Shown here: positions 3,311-22,556 of the stretch, piece after piece
Numbering within the stretch: position 1 is the first letter of the stretch
Layout of the letters: the number at the start of each line of letters is the position of its first letter
Source: Ornithinimicrobium ciconiae
GTDB taxonomy: Bacteria; Actinomycetota; Actinomycetes; Actinomycetales; Dermatophilaceae
Length of the DNA: 64,000 bases
Reading direction: 5' to 3'
Assembly (NCBI RefSeq): GCF_007197575.1
Contig: NZ_CP041616.1
Coordinates: forward strand, 558,001 to 622,000
Translations under genes and position numbers: made by a program
Notes under the pieces: generated by a model
Databases searched by the model: none
What the model was told of the DNA's origin: nothing
The model's input: the letters and a program-made list of their open reading frames with translations, nothing else

Positions 3311-3378
3311 CGAGCACCCACCCAGGCTCAGGCTCCTGTCCCAACGGTGCCACGGCACGTTGTGGACCTCAGATTTCA

Positions 3379-3408
3379 TTGCCTGCCCCGCGTCGGCCTT
3401 CCTACTGT
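3379..3408 (+). promoter_or_regulatory. Putative promoter of the RiPP operon
   Basis: TTGCCT (3379-3384), an 18-base spacer and TACTGT (3403-3408) form a plausible -35/-10 pair about 60 bases before the first operon start at 3470. Just upstream, GGAC at 3364 and ATTTC at 3373 resemble elements in front of the small secreted peptide gene at 19820. No experiment supports it. Confidence 0.4.
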
Positions 3409-3469
3409 CGAATCCACGAGCACAGCCAACAGCTGCGCTTCACCGGATCGGCTTCTGGGGAAGGACGCC

Positions 3470-5614
3470 ATGTCGACGCACACGACACAGACCACGCGAG
3501 ACGAGGACACTGCAGGAGCGTTGGACGCCGTCCGGCCGCTGCTGCGCCGAGACGTGCTGTATGCCGACACCGGGCAGGGTGTCTTCATCCGGCACGCTGA
3601 CGATGCGTTCGTCATGCGGGGCAGCAGCATCTATCGGTGGCTGTCTGTTCTGGCGCCGCACCTGGACGGTTCGCTCACCGTCGGGGACCTGCGCAGCTCC
3701 CTGCCGGAGGCGCAGCAGCAGATGCTGACCTCCCTCGTCACGGTCCTCCTGGAGCGCAACTTCGCCCGCGACAGCGTCCCCGAGGAGCTCGGCGAGGCCG
3801 TGCTGGACCACCCGTTCGCCGGTCAGATCGAGTTCATCCGGCACTACGTCGACGCCCCGGTCCAGCGCTTCGAGCGGTTCCGCGCGGCCCGGGTCCAGAT
3901 CCTGGGATCCGGCACCCTCGCAGAGTCCACCGCCCGGATCCTGCGGGACAACGGGCTGGAGAGCGCCACGGTCACCGACCAGGTGCCGACGCGGCCGGGC
4001 GACCTCGCTGCCGACGTGGTGATCGCCCTCGGCGACGAGATCGGCCTGGACGGGGTGCGCGCCCTGGCACGGGTGGCGGCCGACGCCGGCGTGCCACTCA
4101 TCCCCGCCGTGACGGTCGGCGGCAGGACTTTCGTGGGTCCCTTGCTGGATGCGGCGAGCACCACGGGAGTCGACTCCTTGATCGCCCGGCTGGGCGCCGG
4201 GCTGGACAGCGACGAAGGCGCCGACTTCTGGCGCCGTCTGGCAGGCCAGCCGTCCGCTGCTCGTCCGGCCGTGGTCGACCAGCACGCCTCGATGCTCGGC
4301 ACCCTGATCGGCTTTGAGGCGTTCCGTTTGCTGACCGGGTGCCTGGATCCCGAGACCCGCGAGGCGGTGGTCGTCCAGAACCTGGAGACCCTTGACATCG
4401 TCAAGGAGCCGTTGTTGGGACACCCGGCTGACCCACGGGCCACCGACCGTGTCGCCGAGACGCCGGCCGACGAACTGCGGGCCGCGGTGGATGTCCTCCT
4501 CGACCCCGAGGCGGAGGTGGAGTCCCGGGCACTGCACGAGCAGGCCGACGGTTACCTCGACCTGGTGCGCCACCACACTGGCGTCTTCCGGCAGTTCACC
4601 GATCTGGAGATCGACCAGTCCCCGCTGAAGGTGGGCCGGGTGGAGGTCGGTGGACTCGTCGGTCGCGACGGGTCGGCCGCCGCCCGCCGCACCATCACCG
4701 GCTTTCACACCCGCACCCCGCTCCAGGCGCGCTTCCGCGCCCTGTGCGAGGCCTCCTTGCAGTATGTCGACACCTGGGGCCCAGAGGCAGCTCGCCAGGT
4801 CCTGGAGCAGGTGGACGTCCCGGTCACCACGCTGGACGTGTGGAGTGGGCTGGCCCCGCAGGCCGACGGCACCGGGGTCTGGGCGACCAGTCTGGTGACC
4901 GGTGACCGGCGTCGTGTCCCGACTGCTGCGGCCTACCCCTTCTCCTCCGCCAATGCTGGCCAGCAGGTGCTGACCAGCACGGTTGGCGCCGGCGCAGCGG
5001 CCACGGCGGCGGACGCCGCGATCGCGGGCTTCTACTCGGCCGTGACCTTCCGTGCCGTGATGACGGCGGTGCGCCGCGGTGCGCCGCTGGACACGGTCGA
5101 GGTGCAGGGCGGCGAGCTGGGAACCGTCCTGCGTTTCCTCACCGACACCTGCCGCACCCTCGACCTGTCGCCGGTGCTCGTCGATGTGTCCCTGCCGGGC
5201 TGCGGCGGCACGGTGATCGCCTACGTCGAGCGTGACGGTGAGCCCGTGGTCGCCCTGGCGACCGGGGCATCCGTCGAGCTGGCCGTGGTTGACGCCCTGG
5301 TGTCCTTGGTCGGGCGCATCCAGACGGATGGTCCGGCGACCACCGAGGTGGGACCGCTCGCCGACCTTGACCCGCGCGGTCTGCCGCTGTCCGGCCTGAG
5401 CCGCCCGGCCGCAACCGAGCGCCTGTCGGTCACCGCGATGACTGCCGCGCTCGGCCCCGACACCGATGTCCTCGTGGTGGACACCGGCCTTCCCGATCTT
5501 GCTCAGGGCGGCATCCGGACCGCTCGGGTCCTCTTGACCACAGCCTCCGGACCCTCTGGTGAGGACGCTCCTCTGGCGTCTGACGACGGACCGACCCACC
5601 CCGAGAGGAGGTGA
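3470..5614 (+). CDS. RiPP leader-binding F protein with degenerate YcaO-like C-terminus
   Basis: A 714-residue protein of the azoline-RiPP 'Ocin-ThiF-like'/cyclodehydratase-partner type. Residues about 20-110 look like a RiPP recognition element (winged-helix; LLRRDVLYADTG, RGSSIYRWLSVL, LLERNFARD), which binds the precursor leader. Residues about 140-300 have an E1-like Rossmann fold (VQILGSGTLAESTARIL) lacking the full GxGGxG nucleotide loop, so it probably does not adenylate. From about 385 to 660 the order of segments follows YcaO proteins (ARFRALCEASLQYVDTWG; YPFSSANAGQQVLTSTVGAG) without clear ATP-binding Glu residues, so it is read as a dead YcaO domain. The ATG at 3470, after GGGGAAGGA, is preferred over the GTG at 3347. 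It overlaps the precursor gene's ribosome site. Role inferred: delivering precursors to the YcaO enzyme at 6433. Confidence 0.75.
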   Translation: MSTHTTQTTRDEDTAGALDAVRPLLRRDVLYADTGQGVFIRHADDAFVMRGSSIYRWLSVLAPHLDGSLTVGDLRSSLPEAQQQMLTSLVTVLLERNFARDSVPEELGEAVLDHPFAGQIEFIRHYVDAPVQRFERFRAARVQILGSGTLAESTARILRDNGLESATVTDQVPTRPGDLAADVVIALGDEIGLDGVRALARVAADAGVPLIPAVTVGGRTFVGPLLDAASTTGVDSLIARLGAGLDSDEGADFWRRLAGQPSAARPAVVDQHASMLGTLIGFEAFRLLTGCLDPETREAVVVQNLETLDIVKEPLLGHPADPRATDRVAETPADELRAAVDVLLDPEAEVESRALHEQADGYLDLVRHHTGVFRQFTDLEIDQSPLKVGRVEVGGLVGRDGSAAARRTITGFHTRTPLQARFRALCEASLQYVDTWGPEAARQVLEQVDVPVTTLDVWSGLAPQADGTGVWATSLVTGDRRRVPTAAAYPFSSANAGQQVLTSTVGAGAAATAADAAIAGFYSAVTFRAVMTAVRRGAPLDTVEVQGGELGTVLRFLTDTCRTLDLSPVLVDVSLPGCGGTVIAYVERDGEPVVALATGASVELAVVDALVSLVGRIQTDGPATTEVGPLADLDPRGLPLSGLSRPAATERLSVTAMTAALGPDTDVLVVDTGLPDLAQGGIRTARVLLTTASGPSGEDAPLASDDGPTHPERR

Positions 5615-5622
5615 AGAAGACC

Positions 5623-5820
5623 ATGGACCCCTTTCTGACTACTGAGATCGCGTCGTTGGAGGCCGAGACCTTTGAGGTGCTCGAGCTCACGGAGGTTGCT
5701 GAGGACATGGCGGCCTGGAGCTCGTGCTCCACGTCAAGTTGCTGCTCGACGTCGAGCTCCAGCTGTGGCAGCACGTCCAGCTGCTCCTGCAGTTGTGCCT
5801 CGACCAGCAGTTGTGCCTGA
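5623..5820 (+). CDS. RiPP precursor peptide 1 (Cys/Ser/Thr-rich)
   Basis: A 65-residue precursor. The leader carries the motif LEAETFEVLEL and ends near EVAEDMAAW. The 33-residue core that follows contains 8 Cys, 18 Ser, 4 Thr, 1 Gly and 2 Ala, so 30 of 33 residues are possible sites of azole formation or dehydration. The ATG at 5623 is chosen because the AGGAGG at 5606-5611 overlaps the in-frame GTG at 5611. It follows the F protein directly. The leader/core boundary is inferred from comparison with the two sister precursors. The family is the thiazolyl-peptide type of bacteriocin precursor. Confidence 0.85.
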   Translation: MDPFLTTEIASLEAETFEVLELTEVAEDMAAWSSCSTSSCCSTSSSSCGSTSSCSCSCASTSSCA

Positions 5821-5850
5821 CCTGTCCGCACCACAGAGAACGGAGAAAGC

Positions 5851-6036
5851 ATGACGACGCGATTCCCACACGAGGAGCTTGTGCAGTTGGAGGTCGAGAC
5901 CTTTGAGGTCCTCGAGCTCGCCGAGGTTGCCGAGGACATGGCGGCGTGGTGTTCGTGCTCCACGTCCAGCTGCTGCTCCACGTCGAGCTCGAGCTGTAGC
6001 AGCACCTGCTCCTGCAGTTGCGCGAGCTGTGCCTGA
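5851..6036 (+). CDS. RiPP precursor peptide 2 (Cys/Ser/Thr-rich)
   Basis: A 61-residue precursor, a clear paralogue of precursor 1. The leader has LEVETFEVLELAEVAEDMAAW, differing from precursor 1 at few positions. The core is 28 residues with 9 Cys, 14 Ser, 3 Thr and 2 Ala. Its first half is nearly identical to core 1 and the tail is shorter, with more Cys. A GGAG ribosome site lies 6 bases before the ATG. The gene is 30 bases after precursor 1. Being so similar, precursors 1 and 2 probably give related products from the same enzymes. Confidence 0.86.
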   Translation: MTTRFPHEELVQLEVETFEVLELAEVAEDMAAWCSCSTSSCCSTSSSSCSSTCSCSCASCA

Positions 6037-6059
6037 GATCACCGATCTGGGTCTGCGAC

Positions 6060-6086
6060 CCGGGTCAGTTCTGAGATTGACCCCGG
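6060..6086 (+). promoter_or_regulatory. Weak hairpin between precursor genes 2 and 3
   Basis: CCGGGTCA (6060-6067) can pair with TGACCCCGG (6078-6086) with one bulged base. It sits in the 89-base gap between precursors 2 and 3, where it could stabilise or partly attenuate the transcript. There is no T-run. Confidence 0.35.
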
Positions 6087-6125
6087 TGTCACCACGCCGG
6101 GACACCCATGTGAAGGAGATCAGAT

Positions 6126-6335
6126 ATGTCCATCAACAGCCTGGGGCGTGAGCTCAAGGAGCTCGAGGTCGAGACCTTCGAGGTCATCGACATCGCTGAC
6201 GCCTCGCAGGACATGGACGGTGCCACGAGCACCTCCTCCTGTGCCTGCTCCACGACGTCCTGCTGCAGCTGTTCCACGTCGAGCTGCTGCGGCTGCACCA
6301 GTTGTTCGTGCGGCTCCACCAGCAGTTGCGCCTGA
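6126..6335 (+). CDS. RiPP precursor peptide 3 (Cys/Ser/Thr-rich, divergent)
   Basis: A 69-residue precursor, more diverged than the other two. The leader keeps LEVETFEVIDIADASQDMD, so the recognition motif ETFEV with flanking acidic and aliphatic residues is common to all three. The core of about 36 residues holds 11 Cys with several Cys-Cys and Cys-X-Cys pairs, and the rest is mainly Ser and Thr with two Gly and two Ala. AAGGAG lies 7 bases before the ATG. It sits 89 bases after precursor 2 and is followed by a strong hairpin. Its different core suggests a second product type or a partner of a two-component activity; that is inference. Confidence 0.85.
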   Translation: MSINSLGRELKELEVETFEVIDIADASQDMDGATSTSSCACSTTSCCSCSTSSCCGCTSCSCGSTSSCA

Positions 6336-6353
6336 GGCAACACCGGCTGATCG

Positions 6354-6387
6354 CTCCCCGGCGGTGTCCGGGAACACCGCCGGGGAG
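6354..6387 (+). terminator. Perfect 14-bp hairpin between precursors and modification enzymes
   Basis: CTCCCCGGCGGTGT (6354-6367) pairs perfectly with ACACCGCCGGGGAG (6374-6387) around a 6-base loop. No T-run follows. The position suggests partial termination or a 3' stabiliser, so that precursor mRNA exceeds enzyme mRNA. Confidence 0.7.
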
Positions 6388-6432
6388 TCCGGCACCACCT
6401 CACGACCCACCAGAGCATTGAAAGGGAGTCAC

Positions 6433-8349
6433 ATGTTCGCCATCGCCACCTCTGAGGCTGTGCCCACGGAGACGACCGCCGCCGAGATCGGCGGGCGCCG
6501 CATCAGCTACGACACGCTGGGCACGGTCAACGTGCTGCCACCCGAGGTGGGACGCTTGCGTGCCGCGCGGCTCGCGGCCGAGAACCCGGACGTGGTGGCC
6601 CTCACCCGCGGTAGCTCGGTGCTCCTGGTCCCCTTCACCGCGCCGGTGCCCGGCACGGGAGGGTGCTTCCACTGCCTGGAACGCCGCTGGCAACTGCTGC
6701 GTGGCGAGGACGAGCGCAACGCCCTGGAACTGGGCGCGTCGATGGAGGCGGCCGCCACGGCCCCCTTCCTGACCGGCTTCGGACGATCCCTGGTGGAGTC
6801 GACTCTCGAGAGCCTCGCGGACACCGACTGGCCCACCACCGAGGCCGGGCTGACCCAGGTCTTCCACGTGCGCCTCGATGCGGGGGCGATGACGCGTTAC
6901 CCGCTCACCGCCGACGCCGACTGCCCGCTGTGCGACCTGCGCGAGGACGACAGCGCAGAGGCCGCGGCGCTGGTCCTGACCCCGCAGCTGAAGCCGACGC
7001 CCGACGCGACCCGGGTGCGCAGCATCCACGACTACCCCCTCGACCCGGACACCTACGCCAACCCGATCTGCGGGATGCTCGGCACGGTCGCCGGCCGGGC
7101 CTACGACTCGACGACCACCGCCCCGGTGACCGGCTACACGCGTATCCGCGGCGACTACCACCTGCACGAGTTCTTCTGGAGCGGTCACGCGGACAACTTC
7201 GCCGACAGCCAGATCCTGGGAATCCTCGAGGGGCTGGAGCGACACTCCGGGCTGCGTGAGCGTCGGATCCGCCCGGCCGTCGTGGACACCTTCGAGAACG
7301 TGCGGGAGCACGCCCTGGACCCGCGGTCCGTCGGGCTCTACCCGGACATCTTCTACGAGCTGATCGGATCGCGCTTCACGACCTTCCGCGATGACCTACC
7401 CATCCCCTGGGTGTGGGCTCACAGCCTGCGGGACAACCGTCAGGTCCTGGTGCCGCACGCCTTCGTCTACTACCTGATCAACGACCCGGCGACCAACTTC
7501 CTCCAGGAGTGCTCCAACGGGTGCGCGACCGGTGGCAGCCGCGAGGAGGCCACGCTCTACGGGCTCCTGGAGCTGCTGGAGCGGGATGCCTTCCTCAATG
7601 CCTGGTACGGCAAGGCGCCACTGCCAGAGATCGACACCTCGACCTGCCGTTCCCCACAGATCCGCATGATGGTCGACCGCCTCTCCCTCATGGGTTACGA
7701 CGTGCGGATGTTTGACAACCGCATCGACCTGCCAGTGCCCTGCGTCACGGGTGTCGCGGTCCGGCGCGACGGCGGACTGGGCACGCTCTCCTTCGCCGCG
7801 GGGGCCGGGCTCGACCCAGAGGACGCCATCCGCGCGGCGCTGTGCGAGATCGCCTCCTATGTGCCCAGCTTCCCCGAGCGGGTGGCCGAGCACCTGGACC
7901 TCGTCCGGTCGATGCAGGAGGACTACCTCGTGGTCCAGGAGCTCAAGCACCACGCGCTGCTCTACGGCGTCCCGGAGATGGCCCAGCACGCGGACTTCCT
8001 GCTCGCCCAGGACCGGGAGCCCCAGTCCGTGCAGGAGCTGTATGCCGAGTGGGAGCGTGATCGTCCCCGCACCGGTGACCTCACGGACGACCTCAACGCG
8101 GTCGTGCAGGCCATCACGGACCGTGGACTCGATGTCCTGATGGCCGACCAGACCTCGCCCGAGCAGCGTTCGGTCGGCCTGACGACCGTCTCCACCATCG
8201 TGCCGGGCCTCATCCCGATCGACTTCGGGTGGACCATGCAGCGCGCGTTGTCGATGCGCCGGCTGCGGGTCGCTCCGGTGGCCGCGGGCTGGCGGGAGAC
8301 TGAGCTGACGGCCGATGACCTGAACATGCACCCCCACCCGTTCCCGTGA
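6433..8349 (+). CDS. YcaO-type azoline cyclodehydratase
   Basis: A 638-residue YcaO-family enzyme that uses ATP to cyclise Cys, Ser or Thr onto the preceding amide, giving thiazolines or (methyl)oxazolines. The N-terminal ~200 residues are a small cyclodehydratase partner-type domain with two CxxC pairs (C78/C81 in GCFHCLERR and C164/C167 in DCPLCDLR), a likely structural zinc site. The YcaO domain follows, with Glu-rich nucleotide motifs (ILGILEGLERHSG; REEATLYGLLELLERDAF; DAIRAALCEIAS). The last residues, PHPFP, match the PxPxP C-terminus typical of azoline-forming YcaOs. The ATG at 6433 follows AAAGGGAG; the reading frame is open further upstream but runs across the precursor and hairpin. 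It is expected to work with the F protein. Confidence 0.9.
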   Translation: MFAIATSEAVPTETTAAEIGGRRISYDTLGTVNVLPPEVGRLRAARLAAENPDVVALTRGSSVLLVPFTAPVPGTGGCFHCLERRWQLLRGEDERNALELGASMEAAATAPFLTGFGRSLVESTLESLADTDWPTTEAGLTQVFHVRLDAGAMTRYPLTADADCPLCDLREDDSAEAAALVLTPQLKPTPDATRVRSIHDYPLDPDTYANPICGMLGTVAGRAYDSTTTAPVTGYTRIRGDYHLHEFFWSGHADNFADSQILGILEGLERHSGLRERRIRPAVVDTFENVREHALDPRSVGLYPDIFYELIGSRFTTFRDDLPIPWVWAHSLRDNRQVLVPHAFVYYLINDPATNFLQECSNGCATGGSREEATLYGLLELLERDAFLNAWYGKAPLPEIDTSTCRSPQIRMMVDRLSLMGYDVRMFDNRIDLPVPCVTGVAVRRDGGLGTLSFAAGAGLDPEDAIRAALCEIASYVPSFPERVAEHLDLVRSMQEDYLVVQELKHHALLYGVPEMAQHADFLLAQDREPQSVQELYAEWERDRPRTGDLTDDLNAVVQAITDRGLDVLMADQTSPEQRSVGLTTVSTIVPGLIPIDFGWTMQRALSMRRLRVAPVAAGWRETELTADDLNMHPHPFP

Positions 8350-8400
8350 ACACCCGCCCCCCGAGACCACAGAGCACAGCGACGTGAGAAGGAGCCCACG

Positions 8401-10023
8401 ATGACCGCAACTGCTACCGCCACCTACATGCACGACATCCTGCGCCGTGGTCGGGTCCCGATGGCCCCCCTGGAGTACGACGTGCCCTGGGACGACCAAC
8501 CTCGCCGCTACAAGGTCTATCCCGGCACGCAGTCCATCGCCCTGGCGCGGCAGGCTCCCGCGGTGGACCGGCCCCTGGGCTATGCGCTCGGGTGCTCGCG
8601 CCGGGAGCGGCCCGGTGACTTCGACCTGGCCTCGCTGGGCAGCATGCTGTGGCACTCCTACGGTCTGTCGGGTCGGCGTGCTGCGGTGCACCGCAACGAC
8701 GATGTGCCTGCCATGCCGTGGTACGACCGGGCGGTCTGGTCCCGCGGGACCGCCTCCGGAGGAGGTCTCTATCCCATCGAGATCTACCTGGTGACCAACG
8801 GCGAACAGGGACTGGCACCGGGGATCTACAACTGGAACAGTGCCCGGCACTCGCTGAGCAGGCTCGCCGTCGGCAACTATCTCGGCCGCATCCAGGACTC
8901 GCTCGGGCCGCACGCCACGGGGGCGGGCAGCTATCTGGTGTTGTCCATCAAGTTCTGGCAGAACGCCTTCAAGTACAACAGCTTCTGCCCCCACGTGACC
9001 GCCATGGACATCGGCACGGTCTTGGCAACCTGGGAGCTGTGGTGCCGCAACCAGGGCCTGCCGCTGCGAGCCAACCTCTGGTTTGACGAGCGTGACCTCA
9101 ATGACCTCCTGGGTCTCGACGGCTATGCGGAGAGCACGGTGGCTGTTGTGCCGGTGCCCATGGGCGGCGCCGTCGCCCAGGGCGGGCGACACAGCACGCC
9201 CGTCCGACACCGTGAGCACGAGAAGTCCCGGGCGCCGCGCAGTTTTGAGGTCATCGACGACATCCAGTCCGAGATCCTCGCTGCTGCGGGCGGCGACAAC
9301 CCATGGCAGGTGCCTCCGCCGCCGCCCCGGAAGCCACGACACGCGCCGGACGATGCCGCCCCCCACGTGGTGCTGCCCGCGCAGCCCCTCGGTGAGATGC
9401 CGCTACGTGAGGTGCTGCTGCGGCGCAGGAGCAGCTTTGGTCGATTCGCCGCCGATCCACCGATCAGCCAGGGCGACCTGCGCGCCATCCTGGACGCGGT
9501 CAATGCCGCCAATGACGGGTTTGGCATTGCTGGCGAGTTGCCGGATGACCTGGTCAGCACCTGGGTCTGCGCGACCCACGTCACGGATGTCGCCAAGGGA
9601 ATCTATCGCTACGAGGGCTCCACGGGGGAACTCTCCCAGACCCTCGAGGCCGGGCTGGAGCTGTTCTTGCAGGGCAACTACTTCCTGCGCAACTACGACA
9701 TGGCACGGATCGCGGCCGTCATCGTCCTGACCGGCCGACCCGGTCAGATCATCGAGCACTACGGGCCGCGGGGACTGCGGTTGCAGAACGCCGCGATCGG
9801 CGCAGCCACGCAGTACGGCTATCTCGCCGCGACCGCTCGCGGCCTGGGCTGTGGTGCCGCCCTCGGCTTCGACAACACCTCCTACGGGGAGGCCTTCGGA
9901 ACCGCCTCGTTGGAGGCGGATGACACCACGGCAGAGTGGCCGATGCTGATTCTCATGGTCGGCCACGAGGACACCGCAGGTGCCCAGATGCACCTGCGCC
10001 TGGCAGAGGAGAGCACGCGATGA
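8401..10023 (+). CDS. SagB-type azoline dehydrogenase (duplicated nitroreductase fold)
   Basis: A 540-residue FMN-dependent dehydrogenase that oxidises azolines to aromatic azoles in azole-RiPP pathways. It has two nitroreductase-like halves. The first (about residues 60-290) contains SRGTASGGGLYPIEIYLV, and the second (about 330-535) contains LREVLLRRRSSFGRF and IGAATQYGYLAATARGLGCG. A duplicated arrangement is known for SagB-like proteins of actinobacterial thiopeptide-type clusters. A GAGAAGGAG ribosome site precedes the ATG. It overlaps the next gene by ATGA, indicating translational coupling with the dehydratase. Oxidation to azoles rather than azolines is therefore predicted for the product. 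Confidence 0.88.
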   Translation: MTATATATYMHDILRRGRVPMAPLEYDVPWDDQPRRYKVYPGTQSIALARQAPAVDRPLGYALGCSRRERPGDFDLASLGSMLWHSYGLSGRRAAVHRNDDVPAMPWYDRAVWSRGTASGGGLYPIEIYLVTNGEQGLAPGIYNWNSARHSLSRLAVGNYLGRIQDSLGPHATGAGSYLVLSIKFWQNAFKYNSFCPHVTAMDIGTVLATWELWCRNQGLPLRANLWFDERDLNDLLGLDGYAESTVAVVPVPMGGAVAQGGRHSTPVRHREHEKSRAPRSFEVIDDIQSEILAAAGGDNPWQVPPPPPRKPRHAPDDAAPHVVLPAQPLGEMPLREVLLRRRSSFGRFAADPPISQGDLRAILDAVNAANDGFGIAGELPDDLVSTWVCATHVTDVAKGIYRYEGSTGELSQTLEAGLELFLQGNYFLRNYDMARIAAVIVLTGRPGQIIEHYGPRGLRLQNAAIGAATQYGYLAATARGLGCGAALGFDNTSYGEAFGTASLEADDTTAEWPMLILMVGHEDTAGAQMHLRLAEESTR

Positions 10024-12935: not shown

Positions 12936-14011
12936 CCACGTCCACCGCACCCCGAGCTTTGGCCGCGCTCCAGGAGCCACCCGTGGCCGAGGACTGGATC
13001 GCACTGCACATCTTTTACAGCAGCAACTCCAACCCGCTGCTGGAGGAGTGCGTCCAGCCCCTCGTCGACACCCTGCGCGAGGAGGGCCTGATCGACGGCT
13101 GGTTCTTCATCCGCTACTGGATGGAGGGGCCGCACATCCGGCTCCGGCTGCACCCCACGGACCCTGAGGACCGGGCGGTCGTCCTGGCCCGGACGCGCTA
13201 TGCCGCGGAGACCTTCATCAAGAGCCGCCCCTCCCTCTACAAGAGTGATCCGTCCGTGCTCGGGACCCTCTACAAGGACATGTTCCTCATGGAGTACTCC
13301 GAGGCAGAGTGGGAGGAGAAGTACGGCACCGACGGCAGCATGCCGATGCAGGAGAGCAACACCATCGCCGAGTACCCCTACGAACCGGAGTACGTGAAGT
13401 ACGGCGGCCCCCACGGCGTGCGGCTGGCCGAGCAGCACTTCGAGCACTCCAGCGACACCGTGCTGCGGCTCGTGGCCAGCACCAACCTGCACGTGCGCAA
13501 TGTGATGTTCGGGCTGGCCCTGCAGCTGATGGCGGTCAGCACGCTGACCTTCCTGCCGCGCCCCGAGGACGGAGTTCGCTTCCACGAGGGTTACCAGACG
13601 ATGTGGGAGACCACGATGCTGGCCAAGGACTCTCCCACCCGGGACGGGTTCGAGACCAACTACCAGGAGATGGCCGCCCAGCTGGGTGAGCGCCTCTCGG
13701 CGGTGCGCACCGCGATCGAGACGGGCCGACCGGAGAGCCTGCCGGGGTTCCTCGGTGACTGGGCGGCGCACATGGCGCAGACCCGCGACCGGGTCCTGGC
13801 CGCGACCGACGCCGGTGACCTGGTCTTTCCCGAGCGGATCCTGGAGGGTGACCGCGTGGTGACCACCGACCCTGAGGTGACCCTGCGCACGATGCTGGTG
13901 CCCTTCATCCACATGACCAACAACCGGTTGGGGGTCAGCATCGTGGAGGAGGTCTACCTCTCCCACCTGCTGGCCCGCTACCTCGAGACGCTGCTGGCGG
14001 ACGTGGCCTGA
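12932..14011 (+). CDS. Thiopeptide-type biosynthesis protein (SpaB-C-like, glutamate elimination)
   Basis: A 359-residue protein of the SpaB C-terminal/'thiopeptide-type bacteriocin biosynthesis' family. The opening DWIALHIFYSSNSNPLLEE and the block WFFIRYWMEGPHIRLRLHP are characteristic. In split LanB systems such a protein eliminates glutamate to form dehydroalanine or dehydrobutyrine. A related subfamily forms the pyridine of thiopeptides. Only one such protein is present, and elimination is the parsimonious role because a glutamylation partner lies directly upstream (4-base overlap). It overlaps the next start by one base. Distinguishing elimination from cyclisation needs structural or phylogenetic comparison. 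Confidence 0.85.
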   Translation: MTTSTAPRALAALQEPPVAEDWIALHIFYSSNSNPLLEECVQPLVDTLREEGLIDGWFFIRYWMEGPHIRLRLHPTDPEDRAVVLARTRYAAETFIKSRPSLYKSDPSVLGTLYKDMFLMEYSEAEWEEKYGTDGSMPMQESNTIAEYPYEPEYVKYGGPHGVRLAEQHFEHSSDTVLRLVASTNLHVRNVMFGLALQLMAVSTLTFLPRPEDGVRFHEGYQTMWETTMLAKDSPTRDGFETNYQEMAAQLGERLSAVRTAIETGRPESLPGFLGDWAAHMAQTRDRVLAATDAGDLVFPERILEGDRVVTTDPEVTLRTMLVPFIHMTNNRLGVSIVEEVYLSHLLARYLETLLADVA

Positions 14012-15159
14012 TGGCCTCCACCCTGGCCCCGCACGCCACGCCGGTCCTCGGCGAGGAGGTGACGGTCGGTCCGCCCGTCCGCCGGGTGGGCCAGACCGTG
14101 CACGTCGTGCGTGACCTCCGCTCGGACGGCTACTTCCAGGTCTCGCCCCGGGAGGCCTTCGTGCTCGCCCGGCTGGACGGCACCCAGACCTTCGGGCAGA
14201 TCGAGGAGGACTACGAGGCGGAGTTCGGCAAGGCTCTCGCCGATGCCTCCTGGCACCAGTTGATGGGGCTTCTCTATACCCGCCGGCTCCTCGTGCCACC
14301 GGGGGAGTCCCCGCAGGCCAGCCAGACGGCATACGACCGACTGCGTGAGCAGAACACCGCGGGTCGGGCCACGCCGGCGCGCCTGACCAGGGTGCGCCTG
14401 CCGCTGATCGACCCCGGTGCAGCCATCGGATGGCTGCAGCGCAGGGCGGCGTGGCTGCTGCACCCGGCAACCGCCGCCGTCGCGGGCGTGCTCGTCCTGC
14501 TGATGCTGGCGACCGTCGGGGCGCACCTGCCGGCGCTCTGGGAGGGGTATGCCGACAGCTGGACCAGCGCGCCGCTCTCGGTCGCCGTCGGGGTCGTCGT
14601 GGTCTTGCTGTCGCTGGTGGTGCACGAGTTCACGCACGCGGTGACCTGCGTCCAGTTCGGTGGCCGGTGCCGGGAGATCGGCCTCTCCTGGAGATTTCCC
14701 CTGGTCACGGTCTACACCAAGGTCGAGGACATCTATCTGGTGTCGCACCGGTGGCAGCGGGTCGTGGTGTCCCTGTCCGGGGTCCTGGCTGGGTTGGTTG
14801 TGCTGCTGCCGGTCTTCGTGACGTGGTTGCTGGTGCCAGCGGGGCACCCGGTCGCGGACACCTGCGTGGTGGTGCTCATCCTCGGCGCCATGGCACAGCT
14901 GGTCAACCTGGTGCCGGTCCTCGGGCTGGACGGGCAGAAGGCCCTGAGCCACGCCCTCGGCGTCTGGGACATCGCGGCCGAGAGCCGCTCGTGGTGGAAA
15001 GCAGTCCTGCGTCGCGGTCCGATCCCGGCAGCCTCCGGCGCGGCCCGCTGGGTGGTGCCGGTCTATGGCCTGGTCGTGATGATCCTGCTGAGCGTGGTGA
15101 CGTTGTGGACCCTGTGGGTGGCTGGACACCTGCTCCTCACCGGGGAGGTGCCCTGGTGA
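14011..15159 (+). CDS. PqqD-domain/M50-type membrane zinc protease
   Basis: A 382-residue polytopic membrane protein. The N-terminal ~110 residues resemble a PqqD/RRE winged helix (YFQVSPREAFVLARLDG, TFGQIEEDYEAEFG). The rest has about six hydrophobic segments with HEFTH at 205-209 (a zinc-binding HExxH inside a membrane helix) and NLVPVLGLDG at about 299-308, matching the NPxxxLDG-type third-ligand motif of site-2 (M50) proteases. It overlaps the previous stop by one base and the next gene by four. In the operon it may bind the leader through its RRE and remove it at the membrane, or take part in export or immunity. These roles are inferred. No other leader peptidase is obvious in the cluster. 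Confidence 0.75.
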   Translation: MASTLAPHATPVLGEEVTVGPPVRRVGQTVHVVRDLRSDGYFQVSPREAFVLARLDGTQTFGQIEEDYEAEFGKALADASWHQLMGLLYTRRLLVPPGESPQASQTAYDRLREQNTAGRATPARLTRVRLPLIDPGAAIGWLQRRAAWLLHPATAAVAGVLVLLMLATVGAHLPALWEGYADSWTSAPLSVAVGVVVVLLSLVVHEFTHAVTCVQFGGRCREIGLSWRFPLVTVYTKVEDIYLVSHRWQRVVVSLSGVLAGLVVLLPVFVTWLLVPAGHPVADTCVVVLILGAMAQLVNLVPVLGLDGQKALSHALGVWDIAAESRSWWKAVLRRGPIPAASGAARWVVPVYGLVVMILLSVVTLWTLWVAGHLLLTGEVPW

Positions 15160-16562
15160 GCGCCGTGACCCTGCAAGTAGCACCCCGCCGGACCAGGGTT
15201 GATGACAGTCTCTCGGTCCGCATCGAGGGGTTGACGCCGTATGCCCCGGCAGACCTGGTCGTGACGACGACCGATGGTGCGCTGCGGGTGTGGACCTCGC
15301 GCTCGGCCTTCCGGGCCGACAGTGAGGGGGTGATCGATCTGACGCGGGACGCTCCGCTGACCGGGAGCTCCTATGCGGGTGTCGATCCGACCGGTCCGCT
15401 GTGGTCCGTGGTGGGTGATGGCACCGCGCTGTTCCGCAAGCAGCGCGCGACGCCGCTCCAGTACCGGTTTGCCGTCGAGCTCGGGACGGCCGGTGAGGTG
15501 GCAGTGGTGGACGCGGTGGTGCGCCATTTCGGTCACCGGGTGGTGGAGGAGTCGGTCGCCGAGCCAGGCATCGTCGGGACGGTGCACCGGCCCGGGGACC
15601 GGCAGCCCCGTCCCGCTGTGCTGTTGCTCGGCGGGTCGGACGGCGGGAGCCTGAACCACGCCGCGTCACTGCTGGCGGACGAGGGTTACGTGGTCCTGGC
15701 GCTGGCCTACTTCGGGGTCGAGGACCGACCCCCGACGCTCGCCGGGATCGACCTCGACGACATCGATGGAGCAGTCTCCTGGCTCCTGGCCAGGCCCGAC
15801 GTGACCGGCGCGCAGATCGCAGCGGTCGGCATCTCACGCGGTGCTGAGCTGGCCCTGCAACTGGCCTCCGACAACCCCCGGGTCGGCGCGGTCGTCGCCG
15901 TGGCCCCCTCGGCCCTGCGCCAGCCGGGCCTGACCACCAACTTCTCCGACTTCACCCACGCGGCCTGGGTGCGCGGCGCGGTTCCGCTGCCGTTCAACGG
16001 CTCGAAGCTGGGGATGCGTGACTGGCTGGGGAGCGCGTGGGGGATGCTGCGCAGGCGTCCGATGCGACAGGTCGAGTCCTTCCGTGAGGACCTGCGCCAT
16101 CCCGACCGGGTGCGCCGGGCCGGGATCGCGGTGGAACGGTGCACCGGACCGCTCCTGCTGGTCAGTGGAGAGGACGATCAGCTCTGGCCGTCCGCGGAGT
16201 TCGCTGACCTGATCCTGGCGCGGCTCCACGCCCACGGCCGGGTCGAGCTGGCCGAGGACCTGCGCTATGCCCGGGTCGGGCACTTCGTGGCTTTCCCGAT
16301 GGGCATCCCCGGCATGCCACCGTCGATTGACCTGAGCCCGACCTCCTTCTTCAGCATCGACTTCGGCGGGGAGCGGGCCGAGCACGCCGCCGCTGCCGTG
16401 AACGCCTGGGTGCGGCAGCTGGACTTCCTGGATCGGTGGCGGTCCGGGCTCGATCCGGCTCCTCCAGCACTCGACGGTCTCCCAATGTCCACCGCAATGC
16501 TCGACGACCTGCATCCAGCGCCCGCCGGCGTGTCCGGCGCCGCAGAGAGGAGGACCCGATGA
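15156..16562 (+). CDS. BAAT/acyl-CoA thioesterase-like alpha/beta hydrolase
   Basis: A 468-residue protein with the two-domain layout of acyl-CoA thioesterase/bile-acid-CoA:amino-acid N-acyltransferase (BAAT) proteins. An N-terminal beta-sandwich (RVDDSLSVRIEGLTP...) is followed by a C-terminal alpha/beta hydrolase with GIVGTVHRPGD, PAVLLLGGSDGG and the nucleophile elbow VGISRGAEL (Ser227). LLLVSGEDDQLWPS supplies the usual Asp region and VGHFVAFP the His. The GTG at 15156 overlaps the upstream stop, which fixes the start; the reading frame also runs open through the previous gene, but that part is shadow. In this operon it could acylate or release the peptide, cleave a bond, or act on a thioester. 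Which one is unknown. Confidence 0.72.
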   Translation: MSAVTLQVAPRRTRVDDSLSVRIEGLTPYAPADLVVTTTDGALRVWTSRSAFRADSEGVIDLTRDAPLTGSSYAGVDPTGPLWSVVGDGTALFRKQRATPLQYRFAVELGTAGEVAVVDAVVRHFGHRVVEESVAEPGIVGTVHRPGDRQPRPAVLLLGGSDGGSLNHAASLLADEGYVVLALAYFGVEDRPPTLAGIDLDDIDGAVSWLLARPDVTGAQIAAVGISRGAELALQLASDNPRVGAVVAVAPSALRQPGLTTNFSDFTHAAWVRGAVPLPFNGSKLGMRDWLGSAWGMLRRRPMRQVESFREDLRHPDRVRRAGIAVERCTGPLLLVSGEDDQLWPSAEFADLILARLHAHGRVELAEDLRYARVGHFVAFPMGIPGMPPSIDLSPTSFFSIDFGGERAEHAAAAVNAWVRQLDFLDRWRSGLDPAPPALDGLPMSTAMLDDLHPAPAGVSGAAERRTR

Positions 16563-17500
16563 CTGTCGCGGTCCAGTGCACCCATGTGTCCAAAACCTAC
16601 CCAGGGGGCGTCACGGCGCTCCGTGGCATTGATCTGAGCATCCAGGCCGGTCAGATCTACGGCCTGGTGGGGCGCAATGGCGCCGGCAAGACGACCCTGA
16701 TGCGCATCCTCGTGGGCCTGGTTGCGCCGACCGGGGGCCAAGCCAGCGTGCTGGGCCACCCGGCTGGCGGGTGCTCAACCGGTCAGCTCGTGGGGTCGCT
16801 CATCGAGACACCTGCCTATTATCCGCACCTGAGCGGGCGGGACAACCTGCTCCTCCTGGCCCGCTACCTGGGTGAGTCGGCTCCCGCTGTCGAGCGGGTC
16901 CTGGAGACGGTCGGTCTCAGTGAGCGCGCACGCAGCAGGTTCTCCGGCTACTCGCTGGGCATGAAGCAGCGGCTCGGGATCGCCGGTGCCCTGCTGGGTG
17001 ACCCACCCGTGCTGATCCTGGACGAGCCGGTCAACGGGCTGGACCCGCAGGCCATGGTCTACGTGCGTGACCTCCTCGCGCGGGTCCGGGACGAGGGACG
17101 GACGGTGCTGCTCTCCAGCCACCTGCTGGCCGAGCTCGAGCAGGTCTGTGACCGGGTCGCGATCCTTCACGAGGGCGCCGTCGTCTCCGAGGGGACCCCC
17201 GAGGAGCTGCGCCGGGGGACAGGCAGTGGCATCAGCATCGTGCTGGAGGTGTCCGACACGGCCGAGGCCGTGCGGGTGCTGGAGTCGGCTGAGGGCGTCA
17301 CCGACGTGCGGGCCAGCGGCGGCGCCGTGCACGCCCGCTCCACGGACGGCAGCACCACCCCGGTGGTCCGAGCCCTCGTCGGGGCGGGGATCGAGGTCCG
17401 ATCCGTCACGCAGGGTGAATCCCTGGAATCGGCCTACCTGGCACTGACCGCAGATCCCGATGCGGGAACCGAGCATGTGGTGAGAGGAGCAGTCTCATGA
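16559..17500 (+). CDS. ABC transporter ATP-binding protein (ABC-2/bacteriocin immunity type)
   Basis: A 313-residue ATPase subunit of an ABC-2-type exporter. Walker A GRNGAGKTT, signature YSLGMKQRL and Walker B LILDEPVNGLDP are all intact. The N-terminal half matches the BcrA/immunity-type subunits often linked to antimicrobial peptides. The C-terminal ~80 residues form the usual small accessory domain. The ATG overlaps the previous stop (ATGA), so it belongs to the RiPP operon, and it is coupled to the permease gene by another ATGA. Probable role: exporting the mature peptide or protecting the producer. Confidence 0.9.
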   Translation: MTVAVQCTHVSKTYPGGVTALRGIDLSIQAGQIYGLVGRNGAGKTTLMRILVGLVAPTGGQASVLGHPAGGCSTGQLVGSLIETPAYYPHLSGRDNLLLLARYLGESAPAVERVLETVGLSERARSRFSGYSLGMKQRLGIAGALLGDPPVLILDEPVNGLDPQAMVYVRDLLARVRDEGRTVLLSSHLLAELEQVCDRVAILHEGAVVSEGTPEELRRGTGSGISIVLEVSDTAEAVRVLESAEGVTDVRASGGAVHARSTDGSTTPVVRALVGAGIEVRSVTQGESLESAYLALTADPDAGTEHVVRGAVS

Positions 17501-18384
17501 GCGCAGTGACTGCGCAGCCGGTGATGGTTCGGCGATCGCCTGGCGTCCGATACCTGCGGGCCGAGCTGTCCGCCCTGAGTCGCCGACCGGGCGTGCGCAT
17601 CGCGGTTGGCGTCTGGTTGCTCCAGATCCTGGTGTTCGCCTACGTGGTGCAGTTCACCGTCTACCGCGCCATGGGCGCCGAGCTCGATCCGGAGCAGGCA
17701 GCGAACATGGTCGCCTCGCTCGCCCCCGAACTGGCCGGGACGTATGTCGCGGCCTCCGTTCCGGGATACGGCATCCCGGTCTTCGTCGTGCTGGGGGCGC
17801 TCGTGGCCGCTGGTGACTACCGCTTCGGCACGCTGGGCACCCTCGTCGCCCGCTGTCCACACCGGGTGAGCTTTCTGCTGGCCCGCTATGGCGCCATCCT
17901 GGCCGTCCTCGCGGTCACCGCGGTGCTCACGGTCGTGCTCGGACTGGTGAGCGGTGCAGCACTGACCCTCCTTGAGGGTGGCTCGCTGCGACTCGACCTG
18001 GGCAACCTGGCGGCCGGGGCCGCGGGGGTCTGGATCATGTCCACCGGCTATGCGACGGTCGGCTTCTCCCTCGGCATCCTGCTGCGCAACACGATGACGG
18101 CCTCGGTGGTGGCGATCGCCTGGCTGGTGGCCGTCGAGATGTTGCTCATCGGGGGCCTCGCGGGGGCCCTGCCCGTCGCCGACGCCGCCCGCTCCGTGCT
18201 GCTGACACCCAACGTCGGCTCGCTGGCGGCTGCACTGGACCACGGAGGGGTGACCAGTGGACAGGGGCTGCCCGGAGTCGGAGCAGTGACCGACGGCTGG
18301 GTCGCGGTGCTGATCATCCTGGTGTGGACGGTCGTGGGGCTGGCGCTCGCCGTGCGGGCGTTCCAGCGCCGTGATGTGCTGTGA
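17497..18384 (+). CDS. ABC-2 type permease
   Basis: A 295-residue integral membrane protein with about six hydrophobic segments, for example IAVGVWLLQILVFAYVVQF and VVAIAWLVAVEMLLIGGLAG. It partners with the ATPase encoded just upstream, with a 4-base overlap. The N-terminus has the short cytoplasmic segment common in ABC-2 permeases. Sequence similarity to named permeases is low, so the substrate is inferred only from its place in the RiPP operon. A small DUF1707-like gene follows 25 bases later. Confidence 0.85.
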   Translation: MSAVTAQPVMVRRSPGVRYLRAELSALSRRPGVRIAVGVWLLQILVFAYVVQFTVYRAMGAELDPEQAANMVASLAPELAGTYVAASVPGYGIPVFVVLGALVAAGDYRFGTLGTLVARCPHRVSFLLARYGAILAVLAVTAVLTVVLGLVSGAALTLLEGGSLRLDLGNLAAGAAGVWIMSTGYATVGFSLGILLRNTMTASVVAIAWLVAVEMLLIGGLAGALPVADAARSVLLTPNVGSLAAALDHGGVTSGQGLPGVGAVTDGWVAVLIILVWTVVGLALAVRAFQRRDVL

Positions 18385-18409
18385 GTGGGACGACGAAAGG
18401 ATCGGTCTG

Positions 18410-18607
18410 ATGACGGAGTTGCGGATTGGCACGCGCGAGCGCGAGCGGGTCGTGCGGTCGCTGATGCGGCACCAGGGGATGGGGCGGCTCACGGCGCAGG
18501 AATATCAGGAGCGGGTGGCGCGAGCCCGGGCGGCGGTCGTGGCCAGCGATCTCGACGGCTTGCTCGACGACCTCGAGGCACCGGCGGAGCCACGCGAGCA
18601 CGAGTGA
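18410..18607 (+). CDS. Small DUF1707-like protein
   Basis: A 65-residue protein whose pattern (IGTRERERVVRSLMRHQGMG, RLTAQEYQERVARARAA, ASDLDGLLDDL) matches the DUF1707/SHOCT-like helical domain common at the N-terminus of actinobacterial membrane proteins. Here it stands alone with no membrane segment. The ATG at 18410 is preferred over the upstream GTG at 18371 because CGAAAGG lies about 9 bases before it. It is the last plus-strand gene of the operon, meeting the regulator gene tail to tail after 8 bases. Function is unknown. Confidence 0.7.
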   Translation: MTELRIGTRERERVVRSLMRHQGMGRLTAQEYQERVARARAAVVASDLDGLLDDLEAPAEPREHE

Positions 18608-18615
18608 CGACCTCG

Positions 18616-19713
18616 TCAGTCCGGGTCGTGGGCAGTCCGGGTGGGATGGAGGCTGATCCAGCCCATCTCGGCCGCGCGAGCGCCGAGCTCGAAGCGGCTG
18701 GAGACGCCCAGGCGTTCGCTCAGTTGCGTCACGGTGCGACGGACCGTGCGGACCGAGACGTCCATGCGGCGTGCGATGGCGGCGTCCTTGCGACCCTGCG
18801 CGAAGTGGCGGAGCAACTCGAGCTCGACGGCGGAGGGGCCGTCGCTCGGAGGTGTGGGTGCACCCAGGGGCTCAGCCTGCTGCCACCGGAACTCGAAGAG
18901 CCAGGTCAGGGCCATGACCAGGCCGGGGCTGCGCACCACCACGGCCCCGGCAGACCGGTCCTCGGGGTCACGGACGACGAGGGCGGTGCGGTTGTCGAAG
19001 ACCAGGGTGCGGACCGGGACGACAGGTGCCAGAGCCACCTGTGCCCCGTGCTCCTCCAGCCAGCGCAGGTAGGCCATCAGCTCGGGCTGGCTGCGGGCTG
19101 AGCTGAGATAGATGCTGCGGACCCGGACGCCCTTGTCGAGGAGGGCGAGGTCCTGGTCGCGGGACTGCCGCAGCGCGGCGGGGCCTGGGTTGTGGTCCAC
19201 CAGGGCCAGCACCTCCGAGGTGCACTCGGCGTTCATCTGGTGCAGGAAGGTGACGACCTCGCTGGCGCTGTCCAGGGTCTGGGACTCCGGCTCCTCGGTG
19301 CTCAGGCTCTGGACCTGGCGGAGCAGTCGCGCAGCCTCCGAGGAGGATGCGCGCATGCGTGAGACACGGTCGATCGAGGTGGCGGCGCTGGCTTCAGCTG
19401 CGGCGACGATCCGGTTGATCGGGGCGTCGAGGGAGACGGCGACGAGCAACTCCTCGCGCACATGGTCACAGCGCACCAGGCCGAGCTCGATGAGCCGCGA
19501 AGTCACGGGCGCCAACGCGTCGGCGTTGGTGCCCAGCGTGGCCGCGATCGCCTCGGACTCCAGCGGCCCTTGCGTGAGGAGCACGGCATACACCCCGGCG
19601 CCAGCGGGGTCCTCGCCCGCGTCGGAGAGCACCTCGGACAACACCTTGGTCAGCTCCGAACACTCCGTGTCCACGTGCCCTCCACATCCCGTGGAACGTG
19701 GCCTGATGCGCAA
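18616..19713 (-). CDS. LuxR-type transcriptional regulator
   Basis: A 365-residue regulator. The N-terminal region looks like a TrmB-type winged helix (YAVLLTQGPLESEAIAATLG). A middle ligand or effector-like part follows (VRSIYLSSARSQPELMAYL). The C-terminal LuxR helix-turn-helix contains ELELLRHFAQGRKDAAIARR, DVSVRTVRRTVTQLSERLGV and WISLHP. Similar regulators control antimicrobial clusters in actinobacteria. The start is uncertain: the ATG at 19713 or the GTG at 19674, which has a GGAGGG very close to it. It lies between the RiPP operon and a divergent small secreted peptide gene, so it probably controls both. Confidence 0.82.
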   Translation of the reverse strand: MRIRPRSTGCGGHVDTECSELTKVLSEVLSDAGEDPAGAGVYAVLLTQGPLESEAIAATLGTNADALAPVTSRLIELGLVRCDHVREELLVAVSLDAPINRIVAAAEASAATSIDRVSRMRASSSEAARLLRQVQSLSTEEPESQTLDSASEVVTFLHQMNAECTSEVLALVDHNPGPAALRQSRDQDLALLDKGVRVRSIYLSSARSQPELMAYLRWLEEHGAQVALAPVVPVRTLVFDNRTALVVRDPEDRSAGAVVVRSPGLVMALTWLFEFRWQQAEPLGAPTPPSDGPSAVELELLRHFAQGRKDAAIARRMDVSVRTVRRTVTQLSERLGVSSRFELGARAAEMGWISLHPTRTAHDPD

Positions 19714-19733
19714 TTGCTGTCATGGCCCGTTCC

Positions 19734-19777
19734 GGACAACTCGAATTTCCCCACGAGGTTCGCGGCGCCGCTAGCGT
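19734..19777 (+). promoter_or_regulatory. Putative promoter of the small secreted peptide gene
   Basis: A TANNNT -10 element, TAGCGT (19772-19777), lies 43 bases before the ATG at 19820. Upstream, GGAC (38 bases before the -10) and ATTTC recur in front of the RiPP operon, where GGAC is 39 bases before the -10. The ATTTC spacing differs (27 and 30), so the shared motif is tentative. Confidence 0.35.
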
Positions 19778-19819
19778 GCGAACTACGACCACTCTAGCGA
19801 CGAACGATGGAGCACTCCC

Positions 19820-19957
19820 ATGAAGGTTCTCATGTCCCTGAAGGTTTTCACCGCGACGGCGATTGCCGCCCTCGCCCTCCTGGCCCCCACTGCGGCCAGC
19901 GCAGCGGAGACAGAGGTTGACCCCGCGTGCATCACGTGTTGGGATCACACCGAGTGA
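19820..19957 (+). CDS. Small secreted peptide (45 aa) divergent from LuxR regulator
   Basis: A 45-residue reading frame with a clear Sec signal: basic start MKVLMSLKVF, hydrophobic core TATAIAALALLAPT, then AASA-A as a signal peptidase I site. About 16 residues remain, ending PACITCWDHTE with a CxxC pair. GGAG lies 7 bases before the ATG and a plausible -10 is 43 bases upstream. It is divergent from the LuxR-type regulator of the RiPP cluster. It could be an exported signal, an immunity factor or an unrelated peptide. No family is recognised. Confidence 0.65.
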   Translation: MKVLMSLKVFTATAIAALALLAPTAASAAETEVDPACITCWDHTE

Positions 19958-20313
19958 CGGCCCGTGCGGTCCTCCCACGAGAGCGTCCGCCCCACCACAC
20001 GATCACCGAAGAATCCCTGGGCGCAACACCGCTCGCCGAACGGTGGAACTGTCTGGACGTGAGTGAACGACGCGCCCCTCTTTATCCAGCGACGCCGTTA
20101 AATCGATTCCTGAATAGTGACCGGAATGTTATAAAAATTTGGGAATCCCCCGGGTGTCATTGGTACGTTTGAGCGCGCGGCGCCTCCTCCTGGGGTCATC
20201 CGGCTCCGGCCGCTCGGCGTGCTGTGACGCATGCGCTGACACTGCAGGGACGTTGAGGTGCTGTCCGAGATGTCAGCGTACGGTTGATGTCAAGACCTGA
20301 GGAGCTCATCACG
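19958..20313. other. Gene-free region before the osmoprotectant operon
   Basis: No convincing gene. The part around 20095-20150 is unusually AT-rich for this chromosome (ttaaatcg, gttataaaaatttggg) and probably holds promoter or regulatory DNA for the proV-like gene. No clear operator was identified. Confidence 0.5.
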
Positions 20314-22523: not shown

Positions 22524-22540
22524 GCTGGGCTGATGCGACG

Positions 22541-22556
22541 GCGGACCTGAGTCCGC
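22541..22556 (+). promoter_or_regulatory. Intercistronic hairpin between proW and proX
   Basis: GCGGAC, a 4-base loop and GTCCGC lie between the permease and binding-protein genes. It may stabilise the downstream mRNA so that binding protein is made in excess. It is short, so this is tentative. Confidence 0.35.

What the first reader, a model, noticed from the sequence alone, without database searches (positions are those of the whole stretch)
3347..19957. RiPP cluster combining azole formation and LanB-type dehydration, with three precursors
The gene set (leader-binding F protein, YcaO, SagB dehydrogenase, split LanB, M50-type protease, BAAT-like hydrolase, ABC exporter, LuxR regulator) predicts peptides carrying both azol(in)es and dehydroamino acids. 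The genes are joined by 1-4 base overlaps from 10020 to 17500, so they act as one unit. The set recalls goadsporin and thiopeptide pathways, but the triple precursor and the accessory enzymes differ from what I know of those. The cluster may be new.
Basis: partly seen in the sequence, partly recalled or inferred. Interest (0 to 1): 0.9.

Follow-up and report, generated by a model that had tools for sequence, protein, structure and literature searches.

The report
Actinobacterial azole-dehydro peptide cluster, three precursors
This actinobacterial gene cluster encodes three small peptides whose predicted cores are almost only serine, threonine and cysteine, next to enzymes predicted to turn them into linear chains of azole rings and dehydroamino acids; similar clusters recur in many actinobacteria, and no product of such a cluster was found in the papers searched.

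Summary
Window 3470-19957 is one RiPP cluster: three precursors, F scaffold, fused E1-YcaO, SagB, split LanB, M50 protease, BAAT-fold hydrolase, ABC exporter. It is not unique: 22 of 393 other sampled genomes of the class carry the F protein (E<=1e-20), and of 18 loci fetched from these, 18 have F, YcaO, SagB and both LanB parts, and 17 have Ser/Thr/Cys cores and an M50. It does not look like a thiopeptide pathway: the genome has one PF14028 protein, with elimination-type residues, and no LanC. The likely product is a set of linear peptides with many azoles and dehydroamino acids, made as in goadsporin. Differences from goadsporin: F is shaped like a LynD/TruD heterocyclase but has lost conserved Glu/Arg residues; leader removal is likely by an RRE-fused site-2 protease; BAAT stands where goadsporin has an acetyltransferase; sets of distinct precursors are shared between species. 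In the genus the whole unit lies between peptidase S58 and purU, a gap of 42 to 5763 bp in the 20 congeners where both flanks were found and F was not. New variant of a known kind.

The parts
3470..5614 (+). F protein, 714 aa: RRE-like, E1-like and degenerate YcaO domains; likely leader-binding scaffold
   Evidence: TIGR03693 77 bits, below its cut-off 561.9; PF02624 26 bits, cut-off 25.7; AlphaFold2 pLDDT 83, Foldseek to heterocyclase 4v1t E 4e-27; most conserved Glu/Arg of YcaO not kept
5623..5820 (+). precursor A1 (class I core), 65 aa
   Evidence: 98% identical stretch in F0845
5851..6036 (+). precursor A2 (class I core), 61 aa
6126..6335 (+). precursor A3 (class II core), 69 aa
   Evidence: TIGR03892 39.4 bits against cut-off 25; identical protein in F0845; 40 database hits including itself
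6433..8349 (+). fused E1-like and YcaO cyclodehydratase, 638 aa, ends in PHPFP
   Evidence: TIGR03604 309 bits and TIGR03882 74 bits, both above cut-off; four Cys, Glu/Arg residues and PHPF invariant in 14 sequences
8401..10023 (+). SagB-family FMN dehydrogenase, two nitroreductase stretches
   Evidence: TIGR03605 128.7 bits, cut-off 78.4; PF00881
10020..12935 (+). LanB glutamylation protein
   Evidence: PF04738; PDB 6ec7 (listed as lantibiotic dehydratase domain protein; recalled as TbtB) 2.4e-28 and goadsporin protein 9jhq 2.5e-10
12932..14011 (+). LanB elimination protein, the only PF14028 match in the genome
   Evidence: PF14028 173 bits; R70, R72 and H327 invariant in 18
14011..15159 (+). 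M50 site-2 protease with an RRE-like N-terminus; likely leader peptidase
   Evidence: PF02163; NF041824 107 bits, below cut-off 300; AlphaFold2 pLDDT 89; Foldseek to 3b4r and RRE 5v1u, weak E-values; H205, E206, H209, D307, G308 invariant in 17
15156..16562 (+). BAAT/acyl-CoA thioesterase-fold hydrolase
   Evidence: PF08840, PF04775; ACOT2 3hlk 1.4e-41; S227, D341, H376 invariant in 3
16559..17500 (+). ABC transporter ATPase
   Evidence: PF00005
17497..18384 (+). ABC-2 permease
   Evidence: PF12679
18410..18607 (+). DUF1707 protein
   Evidence: PF08044; also in F0845
18616..19713 (-). LuxR-type regulator, weak TrmB-like N-terminus
   Evidence: PF00196 above, PF01978 below cut-off; 89% identical in F0845
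19820..19957 (+). 45-aa peptide with signal-like N-terminus and CITCW motif
   Evidence: same place in F0845

Best explanation
The cluster encodes three precursor peptides and an enzyme set that would likely convert them into linear peptides rich in azoles and dehydroamino acids, as in goadsporin. Inferred steps: the leader (LExETFEV motif) is bound by the RRE-like part of F, a pseudo-heterocyclase scaffold; the fused E1-YcaO closes Cys (and perhaps some Ser/Thr) onto the backbone as azolines; SagB oxidises them to azoles; LanBN then glutamylates remaining Ser/Thr from Glu-tRNA and LanBC eliminates glutamate to give Dha/Dhb; the membrane M50 protease, docking the same leader with its own RRE-like part, cuts the leader; the ABC pair exports the peptides; LuxR regulates. 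BAAT, with a Ser-Asp-His set of conserved residues, likely acts as a hydrolase on the peptide in this sub-branch. Shown here: gene content and order, domain and fold assignments, conserved residues, one-unit insertion, recurrence. Not shown: any chemistry, cleavage site or activity.
For: YcaO, SagB and LanBC pass curated cut-offs. YcaO Glu/Arg residues (recalled as ATP/Mg site) and C-terminal PHPF are invariant in 14 sequences. One PF14028 and no LanC in the genome. LanBC keeps the HxRLRL Arg pair, YxPEYxKYGG and HMTNNR, close to MibB's HLRVRF, YDPEYERYGG and HMTCNR. The M50 model resembles both a site-2 protease and RRE proteins, a fusion described for daptides (PMC10036551, passages). Predicted cores are 30 of 33, 26 of 28 and 32 of 37 residues Ser/Thr/Cys. 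In 18 fetched loci of the class sample, F, YcaO, SagB, LanBN and LanBC are in 18, M50 and ABC in 17.
Against: LanBC as a whole scores best against pyridine synthases: NF045556 105.3 bits (cut-off 325) against TIGR03891 104.4 (cut-off 48.45), and PDB TbtD first. TbtD keeps the first Arg of the pair, and its alignment ends before the His, so the His test covers PbtD only. A3 passes the thiazolylpeptide precursor cut-off. Foldseek E-values for the M50 model are only 0.02 to 0.04. TIGR03693 and NF041824 are below their cut-offs. No mass spectrum exists here, and nothing fixes which Ser/Thr become oxazole, Dha or stay free.
Confidence: 0.8

Rival explanations
1. It is a thiopeptide pathway: LanBC, or an unrecognised protein, makes the pyridine ring and the product is macrocyclic.
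For: A3 passes TIGR03892; some database entries of precursor relatives are called thiazolylpeptide-type bacteriocin; LanBC's best whole-length matches are TbtD-like.
Against: Only one PF14028 match in the genome, and only one in F0845 and in Modestobacter; it carries the second Arg that TbtD lacks, and both Arg and the His that PbtD lacks in the printed alignments. If it made the pyridine, nothing recognised would be left for elimination.
Confidence: 0.08
2. It makes a lanthipeptide: Cys residues add to Dha/Dhb, by an unknown cyclase or without one.
For: Many Cys beside Ser/Thr, and a LanB-type dehydratase pair.
Against: No LANC_like match in the genome; a complete YcaO and SagB set expected to consume Cys.
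Confidence: 0.05
3. Mostly azoles: the LanB pair is idle, or dehydrates one or two residues.
For: Goadsporin has only two Dha beside six azoles (PMC5303826, abstract start and passages).
Against: LanBN and LanBC are kept in 18 of 18 fetched loci of the class sample with invariant residues in 18 aligned LanBC.
Confidence: 0.07

Closest known systems
Goadsporin pathway (Streptomyces sp. TP-A0584)
   Same: YcaO, flavin dehydrogenase, split LanB, linear azole plus Dha product, no cycloaddition protein (PMC5303826 and PMC4603692, passages)
   Different: Goadsporin has a 19-residue core, GodB (ABC transporter with peptidase domain) and GodH acetyltransferase; here F pseudo-heterocyclase, RRE-like site-2 protease, BAAT and several Ser/Thr/Cys cores
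Spongiicolazolicins A and B
   Same: Called goadsporin-related, with azoles and dehydroamino acids, 28-29 residues (PMC8838263, PMC10676384 and PMC11583998, passages)
   Different: Pattern described as similar to tripeptide blocks that keep one unmodified residue; no antibacterial activity reported; the original paper was not seen, so its gene cluster could not be compared
Coryneazolisins
   Same: Two YcaO proteins (one discrete, one fused), lanthipeptide-like dehydratases, no cycloaddition protein, product unknown as of 2015 (PMC4603692 section 26)
   Different: Core is ten Cys/Ser/Thr, Ile, then 5-7 more; that section names no protease or BAAT; sequences not compared here
Thiopeptide front end (micrococcin TclI/TclJ/TclN)
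   Same: Ocin-ThiF-like scaffold with RRE, fused E1-YcaO, dehydrogenase (PMC10634744, passages)
   Different: No pyridine synthase beside the elimination protein here; F is 714 aa with a degenerate YcaO part
Daptide protease MpaP (NF041824)
   Same: RRE fused to intramembrane site-2 protease (PMC10036551, passages)
   Different: Below the family cut-off, 107 of 300 bits; precursors differ

Membership tests
Linear azol(in)e peptides with dehydroamino acids (goadsporin type) | Complete YcaO with SagB-type dehydrogenase | tested here: met
Linear azol(in)e peptides with dehydroamino acids (goadsporin type) | Split LanB: glutamylation and elimination proteins | tested here: met
Linear azol(in)e peptides with dehydroamino acids (goadsporin type) | No pyridine synthase | tested here: met
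   One PF14028 match in the genome, elimination-type residues; a pyridine synthase outside PF14028 is not excluded
Goadsporin pathway proper | GNAT acetyltransferase and peptidase-ABC in the cluster | tested here: not met
   No such domain among the cluster proteins scanned
Linear azol(in)e peptides with dehydroamino acids (goadsporin type) | Product with azoles and Dha/Dhb | not testable with these tools
   needs mass spectrometry
Thiopeptide | Pyridine synthase beside an elimination protein | tested here: not met
Thiopeptide | Precursor of thiazolylpeptide type | tested here: inconclusive
   A3 passes TIGR03892, A1 and A2 do not
Class I lanthipeptide | LanC cyclase | tested here: not met
Coryneazolisin | Two YcaO proteins and the Ile-interrupted core | tested here: not met
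   One intact and one degenerate YcaO; core without Ile; coryneazolisin sequences not fetched
Daptide-type protease | RRE fused to site-2 protease with HExxH | tested here: met
   the fold matches being weak by E-value; sequence score below the equivalog cut-off

The most novel reading that the evidence does not exclude
These clusters make fixed cocktails: one enzyme set matures two or more different Ser/Thr/Cys cores that act together, the first multi-component azole-dehydro peptides, in which nearly every residue becomes an azole or a dehydroamino acid. In the sub-branch of the window the pair class I plus class II comes with the BAAT hydrolase, which finishes one of the partners.
Probability: 0.2. 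Interest if true: 0.75.

Novelty: new variant of a known kind. Interest (0 to 1): 0.5.

Why it matters
If the chemistry holds and most residues are modified, cores of 28 to 37 residues with 26 to 32 modifiable Ser/Thr/Cys would give more densely modified linear azole-dehydro peptides than any I recall. They would test how a YcaO and a LanB pair divide adjacent Ser, Thr and Cys, a point of timing and selectivity that the dehydrazole paper calls not yet known for such pathways (PMC10676384, passage). Some database names call the relatives thiazolylpeptides; this evidence says that label may mislead. The shared precursor sets make a multi-component activity testable.

Tried and rejected
A shared operator upstream of F and of the 45-aa peptide: the best 18-base match (13 of 18) was reached by 19 of 60 shuffles, so it is dropped. 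A chance ORF pile-up: rejected. In one search ten loci were searched for precursors in the F-YcaO gap and by a looser rule; none convinced. The precursor of L026 had been seen; those of clusters L008, L012 and L013 turned up further out; those of L009, L017, L021, L022, L025 and L032 remain unlocated. BAAT in Schaalia turicensis could not be tested: no locus was fetched. In the order sample 59 of 396 genomes matched the F profile at 1e-3, but only own plus five score below 1e-30; the rest are partial, weak matches and were dropped. Papers: ten searches showed me no product for such a cluster; I saw listings, abstract starts, passages and a few sections, subscription papers are mostly missing, and the spongiicolazolicin paper itself was not seen.
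Full report
What is there. Genes and scores are in the parts list. The six junctions from SagB to the permease overlap by 4, 4, 1, 4, 4 and 4 bases. Ser/Thr/Cys-rich windows occur nowhere else in the 64 kb.

Are the precursors real? Yes. Between the window and F0845, A3 differs by 12 synonymous codons and no amino acid; A1 by 17 and 1; A2 by 17 and 5. The six enzyme genes compared differ at 9 to 20% of codons by amino acid. A1 (1 of 66) and A3 (0 of 70) are held more tightly than any of these; A2 (5 of 62, one of them Cys to Ser in the core) is about like YcaO.

One unit. In 31 genomes of the genus, own included, I looked for peptidase S58 (left neighbour) and purU (right neighbour) (both gene names are recalled from the sequences); the gaps are my hand reading of the two tables. 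In 22 both lie close together on one contig. In 20 of these, where one search found no F, the gap is 42 to 5763 bp, and in 13 of them below 250 bp; in F0845 it is 17.0 kb and in the window 20.5 kb, the surplus matching the OpuA-type genes at 20284-23566. The nine other genomes show no clear purU orthologue. The block from F to the 45-aa peptide was thus likely gained or lost as a unit, and LuxR, DUF1707 and the peptide go with it. F was found in 3 of 97 genomes, own included: own, F0845 and one distant match at 27% identity.

Azole part. The fused E1-YcaO passes two curated cut-offs; its four Cys, its Glu/Arg residues (E266, E269, R270, E372, E380, E383, R384) and PHPF at the end are invariant in 14 sequences. 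That these Glu/Arg form the ATP/Mg site is recalled. F has an AlphaFold2 model (pLDDT 83) whose best PDB matches are heterocyclases, 4v1t and TruD 4bs9 (E 4e-27 and 2e-22; 4v1t recalled as LynD). A profile comparison aligns F with the YcaO family (probability 99.2). By my reading of that alignment, E266 is kept in the window's F, while E269, R270, E372, E380, E383 and R384 read Leu, Gln, Asp, Ser, Thr and Phe. So F has the shape of a heterocyclase with most of that site lost, and is likely a scaffold, as TclI is in micrococcin (PMC10634744, passages). The scaffold role is inference.

Dehydration part. LanBN resembles 6ec7 and the goadsporin protein 9jhq. LanBC is the only PF14028 match of the genome. 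Its R70, R72 and H327 are invariant in 18 sequences. In the printed alignments MibB (5ehk, listed as lantibiotic dehydratase; name recalled) has a matching Arg pair, YGG motif and HMTCNR; TbtD has the first Arg only and no YGG motif, its alignment ending before the His; PbtD lacks both Arg and the His. That H327 answers to NisB His961, which is essential (PMC4341554, passages), is recalled, not aligned. This speaks for elimination, although total scores slightly favour pyridine synthases. No LanC is found. I searched PF14028 in the genomes of 17 of the 30 loci: five, including F0845 and Modestobacter, have just one match; among the rest, a second one within 10 kb of the cluster copy is seen only in G120, a weak one (25 bits) in a cluster of different gene order.

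Leader removal and export. The M50 model (pLDDT 89) matches a site-2 protease and, over about 90 columns, lasso-peptide RRE proteins bound to leaders, with probability 0.99 to 1.00 but E-values of 0.02 to 0.04. The table gives no ranges; that the RRE match is the N-terminus is inferred from the strands and helices of residues 17-90. HExxH and the later Asp-Gly are invariant in 17 sequences. The same fusion is described for daptides (PMC10036551, passages). It is the natural candidate for leader peptidase.

BAAT. The two PDB matches are acyl-CoA thioesterases 2 and 4. A Ser nucleophile, Asp and His are conserved in three sequences. Human BAAT uses Cys there (recalled), so hydrolysis is likelier than N-acyl transfer. 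In 26 relatives' genomes an in-cluster BAAT is seen in F0845, Modestobacter and Catellatospora only; seven others have weaker matches elsewhere. It is in 0 of 18 loci of the class sample (stretches of 17.5 to 20 kb, E<=1e-4).

The family. A scan of genome contigs gave 30 loci. Of the 26 with LanBC, 19 have a detectable M50. Of the seven without, L026, L029, L030 and L031 have short mixed precursors and L033-L035 another gene order; the stretches end about 1.5 to 8 kb after LanBC, so an M50 further out is not excluded. In the class sample, 22 of 393 other genomes have F at E<=1e-20; I fetched loci from 18 of these 22, leaving out four low-scoring ones. F, YcaO, SagB, LanBN and LanBC are in 18 of 18, M50 and ABC in 17. 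The one without M50, L123, has a short mixed precursor; the other 17 have Ser/Thr/Cys cores. Thus the 27 clusters with Ser/Thr/Cys cores apart from the window (10, 17) all show an M50, and the five with short mixed cores show none at the thresholds and in the stretches used. The more distant loci, also with Ser/Thr/Cys-rich precursors, are not in this count; there an M50 match was seen only in L086, weakly.

Precursor sets. Class I and class II patterns were drawn from the window's precursors and run on 34 loci (L006-L035, L084, L086, L089, L090; some are short). Both occur in F0845, Modestobacter and Catellatospora and neither in the other 31; L111-L128 were not run. So the four clusters with BAAT are the ones with both classes. 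Of 40 database proteins, 4 fit class I, 12 class II and 24 neither. Adjacent locus tags in Schaalia turicensis (P0054, P0022), and three proteins whose longest contig has the same length, 15123 bases (P0029, P0023, P0026), repeat the pair. By eye: Actinomadura loci L011 and L014 share five types and L019 has five precursors of four of these types; three Nocardiopsis-type loci share three types and L125-L128 share three; most other loci where a precursor was found show one. Shared descent alone could explain this; the cocktail reading is a hypothesis.

Known or not. Goadsporin, spongiicolazolicins and coryneazolisins are the closest. I saw passages or sections of papers that describe them, not the original spongiicolazolicin paper; its products were reported without antibacterial activity (PMC8838263, passage), so an antibiotic role should not be assumed. 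I file the cluster as a new variant of linear azole-dehydro peptides.

Noticed in passing
window 19820-19957: A 45-aa peptide with a signal-like start and a CITCW motif is divergent from LuxR and conserved at the same place in F0845; it may be an exported signal. The motif was not seen in the other loci scanned.
   Followed up: partly
window 20284-23566: OpuA-type glycine betaine transporter genes sit between the cluster and purU; F0845 appears to lack them there, and two congeners have gaps of 2.9 and 3.7 kb at the same place that may hold them.
   Followed up: no
L026, L029, L030, L031, L123: Related clusters without detectable M50 have short mixed precursors (such as IASCTTTGSHCHDTIL), perhaps another product type.
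   Followed up: no
L111, L112, L115, L117, L118, L119, L120, L124: The best YcaO match lies about 10 kb from F, near the precursors, so these clusters probably hold two YcaO genes; only the best match was printed.
   Followed up: no
P0022, P0054, P0030: Close precursor relatives occur in Schaalia turicensis and Actinomyces naeslundii.
   Followed up: partly
L084, L086, L087, L089, L090: Distant clusters of the same order have F (L084, L086, L090), two YcaO genes in some, and precursors rich in Ser/Thr/Cys ending in SSTSSCAAL or similar.
   Followed up: no
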